IMG/VR virus record: IMGVR_UViG_3300045051_000720
Location: 155,465 to 219,464 of that record
From: a virus
Length of the DNA stretch: 64,000 nucleotides
Strand: one strand, 5' to 3'
The notes beneath the pieces were generated by a model. It searched no databases, was not told where the DNA came from, and saw only the letters and a list, made by a program, of their open reading frames with translations. The position numbers and the translations under genes were made by a program. Shown piece by piece: positions 2,840-61,437 of this stretch. Each line of letters starts with the position of its first letter. The stretch's first letter is position 1.

Positions 2840-2868
2840 TTGACACTCTTGGTCAATCCTGCTATACT
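2840..2868 (+). promoter_or_regulatory. Strong leaderless promoter of the TnpB-like gene
   Basis: TTGACA (2840-2845), 17 bp, TATACT (2863-2868), the closest match to the sigma-70 consensus in the window. Seven bases separate it from the TTG start at 2876, so the message is predicted to be leaderless with a TTG start. Confidence 0.75.
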
Positions 2869-2875
2869 GTAACTG

Positions 2876-4645
2876 TTGAAGACTCTCATCTACCGCTTCC
2901 GACTTGCTCCTAGCGTGCATCAATGTGCCATGATTGAGGCGAGTAACACACAACTGTGTCGGGTATGGAATGCTTTAGTAGGTGCCACCAAGCACGCCGA
3001 GCACGAATGCAAGCATGGACGCAAGACTTGCGTGGTCAAGCGATTAACTGATTTGCTGACCCAGAAGAAAGTCGTCGGGATGCGCGCGGCTGCCGTGAAA
3101 AAGCTGGCAGAATCCAAAGCAATATCATTAACGGATGCCAACAATCTTCTCACCCGCGAGCAGGTCGCCCGTGAGAGTCGCACGATTGTGCGCAAGAATG
3201 GAACCAAAGCGCGACGGTGTTCTATTCGTAAGCTGGCGTTGGCCTATGCCATTGCTACGGTAGGTCATCAGATCAACCGCTTCGGAGTGGAATCCGCCGC
3301 GTTTTGGGGAGTGATTGAAAAATTCAAAACCTCTACCGCCGACTATCCATTGGGCAAACGGGGTGCGCCCCGATTCAAACGAGTGGGTGATAACGTGTCC
3401 ATGCAGGCTCAGACCAAGAATCAACACGTCAAGGAGGGGGTCGTTGACCTATCGCGTTTAGTCGGTTCTAGTTGTTCCTGTGTCCACATGATTCAACACC
3501 GCCCGATTCCAGACGGCGCGATTGTCAAGCAGATGGCCGTGGTTAAGCAAAATGACCGGCTGTTTGTGGCCATCTTTGTTGATGTGCCAGATGCGGCGGC
3601 GCAAAAGAGTTTAATGGCAGCTAGTGGAGCGACGGCTGGTATTGATCCCGGCCGTAAGACGGCAGTGTCGCTCAGTTCTACAGACGGAACAATCCAACAG
3701 GTTGTCTCGCCCCCACTCTTGCGGGACAAACGGTTCATGCGTCGCACGGCGCGGTTGGCACGCAAGTTGGACAGGCAACGCCGCTTTGCCAATCCAGACC
3801 GCTACAATGAGGATGGCACCTTCAAGCGCGGAGCGCGCGGTGTGTGGGTGACAACCAAGGGAATGACTAAGACCCAAAAGCGTGCGAACGATTTGCGTCG
3901 CCGTCTTGTGGATGTACGCACAGAGCACTATCGTCTCAAAGCGCGCGAAGTGTTGAATCAGTTTGACCACGTTGGGATCGGTACATGGCGGCCCAAGGGT
4001 GCGCCGGGTGAAGGACAAGCCAAACGCGCACAGTTGCGCAAGGACGCAGATAACGCTTTGGGTCAATTCGCGGGTATCCTTCGGGACTATGCTGCGCGCA
4101 ATGTGACCCCCAAGAAGATCTACGATATCAATGAGGTCAACACCACCCGTCGTTGCATCAATTGTGGCGAGATGACGGGGCCGAGTGGGTTGTCCAACCT
4201 TGGGGTGCGCGAGTGGACGTGTTCCCACTGTGGTGCCCACCATCAGAGAGACTTTGCTAGTGCGCGAGCTATCGCTCTGCGCACTCAAATCGTGGCCGAT
4301 ACGCATTTGGTTAACGATGGTCCAACGACCAAAATTCAGCCTGTTCGTTATGCCGCAAAGCGTAACAAACGAAGTGGGTTGGTGGCGACACCAATCAATG
4401 TGCCCGTGGAACAGGAAGCGGAGGCCGCGAGGTCCCGTCTGAGTAAAAACGGTGCTCGTGCGAGTGCCCCAGTGGTAGACCATCCGGCCGATTGCACTCG
4501 CGTGCGAAAAGCCAATGCTGACGAAGGCTCTAGCAATATCCTCGCGTCAGAGCCAGCTACCAATGCCTGCAAAGGTAACCATCGCTCGCATAGTTGCGCC
4601 GTAGAACTTGAGTCCACGGTAGTTGTGGAGGAACACTCACTATGA
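2876..4645 (+). CDS. tnpB: TnpB/OrfB-family RNA-guided nuclease homologue with rearranged RuvC site
   Basis: 589 residues from a TTG start set by the promoter. The N-terminus (YRFRLAPS.HQ) is typical of OrfB/TnpB. The RuvC-I Asp is in GIDPGRK (about D257), followed by a long Arg-rich bridge-like helix. At the usual RuvC-II place the sequence is DHVGIGTWRPKG, without the expected Glu. A Glu instead sits just before the zinc ribbon in INEVNTTRRC (about E420), the place used by 'rearranged' TnpB proteins and Fanzors. The zinc ribbon is C-x2-C (about 427/430) and C-x2-C (about 449/452), and the last Asp is in RDFASARAI (about D459). About 120 further residues form a basic, low-complexity tail unlike core TnpB; the 3' end of the gene may also encode guide RNA. 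No tnpA and no clear IS200/IS605 ends were seen. TnpB normally cuts DNA guided by omega RNA; activity here is inferred. It could also be a dead regulator (TldR-like) if E420 is not catalytic. Confidence 0.9.
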   Translation: MKTLIYRFRLAPSVHQCAMIEASNTQLCRVWNALVGATKHAEHECKHGRKTCVVKRLTDLLTQKKVVGMRAAAVKKLAESKAISLTDANNLLTREQVARESRTIVRKNGTKARRCSIRKLALAYAIATVGHQINRFGVESAAFWGVIEKFKTSTADYPLGKRGAPRFKRVGDNVSMQAQTKNQHVKEGVVDLSRLVGSSCSCVHMIQHRPIPDGAIVKQMAVVKQNDRLFVAIFVDVPDAAAQKSLMAASGATAGIDPGRKTAVSLSSTDGTIQQVVSPPLLRDKRFMRRTARLARKLDRQRRFANPDRYNEDGTFKRGARGVWVTTKGMTKTQKRANDLRRRLVDVRTEHYRLKAREVLNQFDHVGIGTWRPKGAPGEGQAKRAQLRKDADNALGQFAGILRDYAARNVTPKKIYDINEVNTTRRCINCGEMTGPSGLSNLGVREWTCSHCGAHHQRDFASARAIALRTQIVADTHLVNDGPTTKIQPVRYAAKRNKRSGLVATPINVPVEQEAEAARSRLSKNGARASAPVVDHPADCTRVRKANADEGSSNILASEPATNACKGNHRSHSCAVELESTVVVEEHSL

Positions 4646-4648
4646 GTG
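4613..4648 (+). other. Twin hairpins at the 3' end of the TnpB-like gene
   Basis: TCCAC (4613-4617) pairs with GTGGA (4625-4629), and CACTC (4634-4638) with GAGTG (4644-4648). The second spans the stop codon. omega RNAs of TnpB systems overlap the 3' end of tnpB, so these are candidate scaffold stems; both are only 5 bp and could be chance. Confidence 0.3.
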
Positions 4649-4664
4649 GGCGAAAGTTCGTTCA

Positions 4665-4940
4665 ATGCGGCCTCACCACATGCGCCAGACCCTCTGCTAC
4701 CTTGACACCCCTCGCGCGTGTGTGGACCTCATCGACCGGCTCAACGCCGAATATCGCCGCGAGTTCGGGCGCAGGTTGACGGTTGATATGACTCTCACTG
4801 TAGGGTCGCACCGTGATTTCCCATCGCGCCGTGATGGGACACCCCGCGATGAGTACAGCATCACCTTGCACGCGGACCCCGTAACCCAAGCCCCCGAGAT
4901 CACATGGCTCATATCGAACACCCAGATCCCCGCAGCGTGA
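4665..4940 (+). CDS. Hypothetical protein
   Basis: 91 residues from ATG 4665; a start at ATG 4680 is also possible, and the open frame extends back into the TnpB-like gene. Contains LCYLDTPRACVDLIDRLNAEYRRE, helical, then strands. No SD and no clear promoter: it may be read with the gene before. Family unknown. Confidence 0.6.
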   Translation: MRPHHMRQTLCYLDTPRACVDLIDRLNAEYRREFGRRLTVDMTLTVGSHRDFPSRRDGTPRDEYSITLHADPVTQAPEITWLISNTQIPAA

Positions 4941-60729: not shown

Positions 60730-61437
60730 ATGTCTTACGGACTCATCTATCTCGCCACTAATCAAGATAACGGGCTCAAATATATCGGACAGACTGTGGC
60801 TACCCTCATCACGAGACGCCAAAAACACATTGATTCGGTAAACGCGGGTAGCACGACCTATTTTCACAACGCGATGCGTAGTCATGGGATAAACGCATTT
60901 GCGTTTACTGTGATCGATACCGCCGACTCCCAAGATGAACTAGACCGCAAAGAGCGGTATTGGATACAGTATTATGAGACTCGCGAGCGCACTAAGGGAT
61001 ATAACACCAAAGACGGCGGTAAACTAGGTGCCGTCCTCAACGAAGATATTATCCGCAAAATCAGTCAAGCCAATACAGGTAAAAAACGTTCCCCGGAAGC
61101 ACGAGCGAAAATGTCGGCCCGCAAAAAGGGTATCCCTAATCCCGCGCATTCGGAACGGATGAAACGTCTGTTTCAGGAGAGACCTAGCTGGTGGATAGGC
61201 AAGACGCATACCGAGGACACAAAGAGGCTACTGGCCGATAAACACCGAGGCAAACACCATTCGCCACATACGCAATACCCGTCAGTAACTATACAATGCG
61301 TGGAGACGGGTGTAATTTTCCCGTCCATCTCTGCCGCGGCACGCCATGTAGGTGTCAATCCGTCAGGCTTCGACCGGCTTAAAAAACATCCGAATCAGCG
61401 TGTCAAAGGGTTTCATTGGGTGCGTCTGACAGCTTAA
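60730..61437 (+). CDS. GIY-YIG homing endonuclease
   Basis: 235 residues. GIY-YIG core: GLIYLATNQDNGLKYIGQT, R and H in TRRQKHID, Glu in ELDRKERYWIQYYE. NUMOD3 repeats follow (ISQANTGKKRSPEARAKMSA, RKKGIPN..HSERMKRL), and an HTH-like end (ISAAARHVGVNPSGFDRLKK). A mobile nuclease; poorer in G and C than its neighbours. It sits between phoH and a fragment that resembles the end of a PhoH protein. Confidence 0.9.
   Translation: MSYGLIYLATNQDNGLKYIGQTVATLITRRQKHIDSVNAGSTTYFHNAMRSHGINAFAFTVIDTADSQDELDRKERYWIQYYETRERTKGYNTKDGGKLGAVLNEDIIRKISQANTGKKRSPEARAKMSARKKGIPNPAHSERMKRLFQERPSWWIGKTHTEDTKRLLADKHRGKHHSPHTQYPSVTIQCVETGVIFPSISAAARHVGVNPSGFDRLKKHPNQRVKGFHWVRLTA

What the first reader, a model, noticed from the sequence alone, without database searches (positions are those of the whole stretch)
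2876..4645. Phage TnpB-like nuclease with the Fanzor-type rearranged active site
Seen: RuvC-I Asp and the last Asp are present and the zinc ribbon is whole, yet the normal RuvC-II Glu position holds GIGTW. A Glu stands instead in NEVNTTRRC, before the first CxxC. Known: in some TnpB proteins and in Fanzors the catalytic Glu moved to this very place. Inference: it can be active, domesticated by the phage without tnpA. The alternative is a nuclease-dead TldR-type regulator.
Basis: partly seen in the sequence, partly recalled or inferred. Interest (0 to 1): 0.75.

Follow-up and report, generated by a model that had tools for sequence, protein, structure and literature searches.

The report
Phage TnpB nuclease with Fanzor-type active site
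A large bacteriophage carries a gene for a TnpB-type RNA-guided DNA-cutting enzyme whose catalytic residues are arranged exactly as in Fanzors, the eukaryotic relatives, an arrangement reported as very rare in bacteria, so it is probably active and is a useful data point on where Fanzors came from.

Summary
The ORF at 2876-4645 (+) is a 589-aa TnpB-family protein in a 219-kb tailed-phage record. It has D257 (RuvC-I), E420 six residues before the first zinc-ribbon CxxC, and D459 (RuvC-III); the usual RuvC-II Glu is Gly369. DPG plus the moved Glu is the published fingerprint of Fanzors and cyanobacterial 'pro-Fanzors' (under 1% of TnpBs), and the protein matches that published regular expression exactly. 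The Gly-for-Glu swap is not decay: it occurs in 32/32 other moved-Glu TnpBs, in mimivirus Fanzor2, and in 0/15 canonical ones. The predicted fold is whole TnpB (Z 21.8 to ISDra2 TnpB). Most likely it is an active RNA-guided nuclease on a lone, tnpA-less element; nuclease-dead TldR is less likely. Moved-Glu TnpBs with DLG are common in phages, so that trait alone is ordinary; DPG plus moved Glu was seen only here. Descent from the Fanzor clade is unresolved: the query is a very long branch, profiles score it almost equally against all groups, and cyanobacterial pro-Fanzors could not be fetched. The guide RNA, element ends, target and activity are unproven.

The parts
2840..2868 (+). sigma-70-type promoter-like site, TTGACA-17-TATACT with extended -10 TG; the TTG start codon lies 7 bases after the -10 hexamer, so any transcript from it would be nearly leaderless
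   Evidence: 11 of 12 consensus matches, but 2 sites found against 1.4 expected in shuffles; consensus match only
2876..4645 (+). TnpB-family RNA-guided nuclease gene, 589 aa, TTG start (an in-frame TAA lies two codons upstream)
3644..3652 (+). RuvC-I motif D257-P258-G259 (DPG)
3767..3832 (+). insertion LDRQRRFANPDRYNEDGTFKRG after RuvC-I, shared with several canonical-Glu TnpB groups
3980..3985 (+). G369-T370 where canonical TnpBs have the RuvC-II Glu
4133..4135 (+). E420, relocated RuvC-II Glu (NEVNTTRRC)
4154..4231 (+). zinc ribbon C427-x2-C430-x18-C449-x2-C452
4250..4252 (+). D459, RuvC-III Asp (HHQRD)
4313..4642 (+). C-terminal extension, residues 480-589, predicted disordered (block pLDDT 32-50); probably the coding shadow of the guide-RNA scaffold, which overlaps the 3' end of tnpB in known TnpB elements
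   Evidence: pLDDT; fold z -2.5 for 4440-4670; -4.2 for 4260-4439, but other windows in the region reach -4.6

Best explanation
The gene encodes a catalytically competent RNA-guided DNA endonuclease of the TnpB family. Its RuvC triad is D257, E420 and D459, with the Glu supplied from the strand that leads into the zinc ribbon instead of the usual RuvC-II strand, as in Fanzors and moved-Glu TnpBs. It very likely binds a guide RNA made from the 3' end of its own transcript (scaffold overlapping codons about 480-589, guide from the sequence just beyond the element) and cuts DNA that matches the guide next to a short motif. On a lone, tnpA-less element in a phage this would act like a homing nuclease: it cuts copies of the locus that lack the element, in co-infecting phages or sister genomes, so that repair copies the element in. 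Shown here: family, intact triad residues and zinc ribbon, moved-Glu pattern, whole TnpB fold prediction, no tnpA in the record, no CRISPR array. Inferred: catalysis, the guide RNA, target choice and the homing role.
For: Intact D/E/D and four zinc cysteines. The Gly369/Glu420 pattern is identical to 32/32 moved-Glu TnpBs and to mimivirus Fanzor2 L79, PDB 9b0l. Exact match to the DPG + moved-Glu expression of PMC10711439, a paper that treats Fanzors with this site as RNA-guided endonucleases. AlphaFold model: RuvC blocks at pLDDT 75-96 over residues 250-370 and 390-470, strand 253-258 carrying D257, strand 414-419 ending just before E420, helix 458-477 carrying D459. Structural match over residues 1-476 to TnpB-omegaRNA-DNA 8h1j (Z 21.8, rmsd 4.0, 358 aligned) and to Fanzor2 9b0l (Z 15.5). 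No Y1 or serine transposase. No CRISPR-like repeat array in 219 kb.
Against: No activity data. No close relative was found, so neither purifying selection on the active site nor a covarying guide RNA could be tested. The 3'-end RNA structure signal is not clearly above background. No empty site was found, so the element ends and the guide are unknown.
Confidence: 0.72

Rival explanations
1. A nuclease-dead TldR-type regulator: an RNA-guided DNA-binding repressor that has lost cleavage and silences a host or phage gene.
For: Canonical RuvC-II Glu is absent; TldRs are phage-encoded in some cases and arose by repeated RuvC inactivation (PMC13418256); no transposase in the record.
Against: RuvC-I Asp, RuvC-III Asp and all zinc ligands are intact, and a Glu sits at the one alternative position used by Fanzors, with the same Gly replacement as 32/32 relatives. 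Many TldRs are linked to a non-transposon partner gene; here the nearest neighbours are small ORFs with no family match.
Confidence: 0.12
2. A decaying insertion-sequence fragment: a lone tnpB that was active in the source element but has no RNA, mobility or role in this phage.
For: G+C of 52-58% across most of the gene against about 60-64% in the flanks; no tnpA; no detectable element ends; C-terminal tail shows no confident fold.
Against: 589 uninterrupted codons with every catalytic residue kept; strong promoter-like site immediately upstream.
Confidence: 0.13
3. A Cas12-like (type V-U) CRISPR effector carried by the phage.
For: Best PADLOC profile is Cas12u2 (E 1e-25, 89 bits, residues 6-473); a cyanophage V-U2 system is on record (PMC6293099).
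Against: No repeat array anywhere in the 219-kb record; PHROG 506, annotated as transposase, scores higher (121 bits); such a profile match is expected for a TnpB.
Confidence: 0.03

Closest known systems
Pro-Fanzors / Fanzor2 (DPG + moved-Glu TnpBs; mimivirus L79, PDB 9b0l)
   Same: DPG in RuvC-I (by the published signature), Gly at the canonical Glu, Glu six residues before CxxC, zinc ribbon, RuvC-III Asp; about 500-600 aa; 30% identity to L79 over the C-terminal 127-aa stretch.
   Different: Pro-Fanzors are reported only from cyanobacterial IS607 elements (PMC10711439); this is in a phage with no IS607-type recombinase found. Common descent is not shown: the tree places the query on a very long branch.
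Moved-Glu TnpBs with DLG (Pseudomonas luteola, Moraxella, Burkholderia, Acinetobacter phage HFM1, many viral contigs)
   Same: Same Gly/Glu exchange, very similar zinc-ribbon block (up to 58% identity over residues 418-469).
   Different: DLG instead of DPG in 32/32; mostly 340-450 aa, without the LDRQRR..NP..YN.DGT insertion or the long C-terminal tail; the query falls outside their clade in both trees, though grouping with them is not rejected (AU p 0.27).
IS200/IS605 TnpB with canonical Glu (ISDra2 TnpB; the phage's own second TnpB)
   Same: Overall fold (Z 21.8 to 8h1j), guide-RNA architecture expected; some canonical groups share the LDRQRR..NP..YN.DGT insertion.
   Different: Catalytic Glu in RuvC-II; DPG absent.
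TldR
   Same: TnpB-derived, phage-borne, no transposase, canonical Glu missing.
   Different: The triad is completed by the relocated Glu; no partner gene recognised.

Membership tests
TnpB family (RNA-guided nucleases) | WED/REC/RuvC/zinc-ribbon fold with D-E-D triad | tested here: met
   NCBIfam score is below its curated cut-off (75 vs 100 bits).
TnpB family (RNA-guided nucleases) | Guide RNA from the 3' end of the element | tested here: inconclusive
   Fold z -2.5, but other windows are as extreme; no relatives for covariation; no Rfam match.
Fanzor / pro-Fanzor signature (PMC10711439) | DPGx(120,160)Ex6CxxCx(12,18)CxxCx(4,8)D | tested here: met
   residues 257-459.
Pro-Fanzor clade | Phylogenetic placement with DPG + moved-Glu TnpBs and Fanzor2 | tested here: inconclusive
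   Only a 127-aa stretch of one Fanzor2 was available; the query is a long branch; profile scores for moved-Glu, canonical and insertion groups are 82, 71 and 86 bits.
Pro-Fanzor clade | Cyanobacterial IS607 element with serine TnpA | tested here: not met
   No PF00239 recombinase in the record; record may be incomplete; host unknown.
Moved-Glu TnpB (DLG clade) | D-hydrophobic-G in RuvC-I with moved Glu | tested here: not met
   The query has DPG.
TldR | RuvC triad inactivated | tested here: not met
   D257, E420, D459 present in the Fanzor arrangement; activity itself untested.
CRISPR type V effector | Associated CRISPR array | tested here: not met
   No 16-mer repeated at 40-110-base spacing in the record.

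The most novel reading that the evidence does not exclude
The protein is a phage-borne member of the pro-Fanzor/Fanzor lineage outside cyanobacteria and outside IS607, or a deep sister of it, which would make large phages carriers or sources of the enzyme type that became Fanzor. The equally open alternative is that DPG plus relocated Glu arose a second time here, which would show that the rearrangement can evolve repeatedly.
Probability: 0.35. Interest if true: 0.7.

Novelty: new variant of a known kind. Interest (0 to 1): 0.5.

Why it matters
PMC10711439 argues that DPG plus relocated Glu marks one narrow lineage, reported only in cyanobacterial IS607 elements, that seeded all eukaryotic Fanzors. 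A complete match in a phage, combined with an insertion otherwise found here only in canonical-Glu TnpBs, either widens that lineage to phages or shows the arrangement evolved more than once. It is also a compact, testable RNA-guided nuclease whose catalytic Glu can be checked by a single substitution.

Tried and rejected
Close relatives: viral contigs scanned with the protein and with alignments and with DNA patterns for NE.NTT..C..C and for the insertion (a first insertion pattern was written one codon short and found nothing); genome contigs once, with one narrow pattern set; phages and plasmids; about 400 sampled genomes (which drew the same sample twice, so this is one test). No protein with DPG plus moved Glu turned up. 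These scans favour proteins with particular short motifs, so absence is not proof. Cyanobacterial pro-Fanzors: no handle to a cyanobacterial genome could be obtained. Tree: the query joins a Streptomyces plasmid canonical TnpB (98/97), but both are long branches and the program warns of it; not used as evidence of kinship. Mosaic origin, suggested by the insertion: the insertion turned out to be widespread among canonical groups, so it does not by itself indicate recombination. Empty site: 65 loci with a related neighbour phosphatase share no other neighbour. Copies of the element ends elsewhere in the phage: none convincing. Rfam: nothing.

Full report
What is there. Window 2876-4645 (+) is one open frame of 589 codons with a TTG start. 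The window is the last 64 kb of a 219,464-base virus record that encodes a lambda-J-like tail tip protein, ribonucleotide reductase, a DnaB-like and a Pif1/Dda helicase, RtcB, a PhoH-like protein and a homing endonuclease, so it is a large tailed phage. The host is unknown.

Family. Residues 2-482 match PHROG 506 (transposase, E 1e-34); NCBIfam guided_TnpB matches residues 6-468 (E 6.5e-21, below the curated cut-off); Pfam TNB domain E 9e-10. The AlphaFold model from a 39-sequence alignment has mean pLDDT 67.6, with the RuvC core mostly at 75-96 and residues 480-589 mostly disordered. Its best structural match is the ISDra2 TnpB-RNA-DNA complex 8h1j (Z 21.8 over 358 residues spanning 1-476); mimivirus Fanzor2 9b0l follows at Z 15.5.

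Active site. D257, C427/C430/C449/C452 and D459 are present. The canonical RuvC-II Glu is replaced by G369 (FDHVGIGTWRPKG), and E420 lies six residues before C427 (NEVNTTRRC). In an alignment with 47 other TnpBs, 32 of 32 proteins with Glu at this second position have Gly at the first; 15 of 15 canonical proteins have Glu at the first and none at the second. Mimivirus Fanzor2 has the same exchange (FDKICIGKLNVK ... NEYLTTKTC). The query is therefore a coherent moved-Glu enzyme and not a canonical TnpB that lost its Glu.

RuvC-I reads DPG, not D-hydrophobic-G. PMC10711439 defines Fanzors and pro-Fanzors by DPG plus the moved Glu, finds the combination in under 1% of TnpB-family proteins, and reports pro-Fanzors as cyanobacterial IS607 proteins. 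The query matches that paper's regular expression exactly, at its upper spacing limit. Among the fetched moved-Glu proteins, from viral contigs, plasmids and genomes, RuvC-I was D-L-G almost throughout and never DPG. The moved Glu alone is ordinary in phages: 78 of 80 loci in one viral scan.

Kinship. Both trees place the query outside the DLG moved-Glu clade on a very long branch. Holding it with that clade is not rejected (AU p 0.27). Profiles of moved-Glu, canonical and insertion-bearing TnpBs score it 82, 71 and 86 bits, which does not discriminate. Only a 127-residue stretch of one Fanzor2 could be used and no cyanobacterial pro-Fanzor was available. The signature is shared; shared descent is open.

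Context and mechanism. No Y1 or serine transposase is in the record and no CRISPR-like array. The gene has 52-58% G+C across most of its length against about 60-64% in the flanks, which suggests acquisition from elsewhere. A near-consensus promoter ends seven bases before the start codon. The same phage has a second TnpB with canonical Glu at G000:C1:149571-150812 (-), just outside the window. In known TnpB elements the guide RNA comes from the 3' end of the gene and overlaps the coding sequence (established knowledge); here residues 480-589 look like such a coding shadow, but RNA-fold z-scores there (-4.2 at best) are matched by other windows. The best-supported reading is an active RNA-guided nuclease on a lone element, acting as a homing-type nuclease; catalysis, guide and target are inferred.

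Verdict. Observation confirmed and strengthened. Interpretation partly supported: active rearranged site probable, TldR unlikely, domestication unproven. New variant of a known kind.

Noticed in passing
G000:C1:149571-150812 (-), about 4.7 kb before the window; L003:1375-2616 (-): Second TnpB in the same phage, 413 aa, canonical RuvC-II Glu (CIEDL) and DFG in RuvC-I; PHROG 506 score 395 bits. Two TnpBs with different active-site layouts in one phage.
   Followed up: partly
window 2840-2876: Near-perfect sigma-70-type promoter with the -10 hexamer ending 7 bases before a TTG start codon: a possible leaderless TTG-initiated message.
   Followed up: partly
G000:C1:23256-25775 (+); L006:3256-5772: 839-aa phage protein with a 2'-5' RNA ligase-like domain that also weakly matches the anti-CBASS protein Acb1 (below Pfam's cut-off).
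   Followed up: no
window 60730-61434: Homing endonuclease (PHROG 314, E 1.8e-44) next to a PhoH-like gene: another mobile nuclease in the same phage.
   Followed up: no
L109, L133, L154, L155, L157, L160 and others (several contigs of one genome): Moraxella atlantae NBRC 14588 appears many times in the genome scan, so its genome carries many copies of a DLG moved-Glu TnpB element; Lampropedia hyalina likewise.
   Followed up: no
L207, L208, L211, L214 against L001, L019, L022, L201, L204: The LDRQRR..NP..YN.DGT insertion after RuvC-I is present in otherwise distant canonical TnpB groups, with and without a zinc ribbon; its role is unknown.
   Followed up: partly
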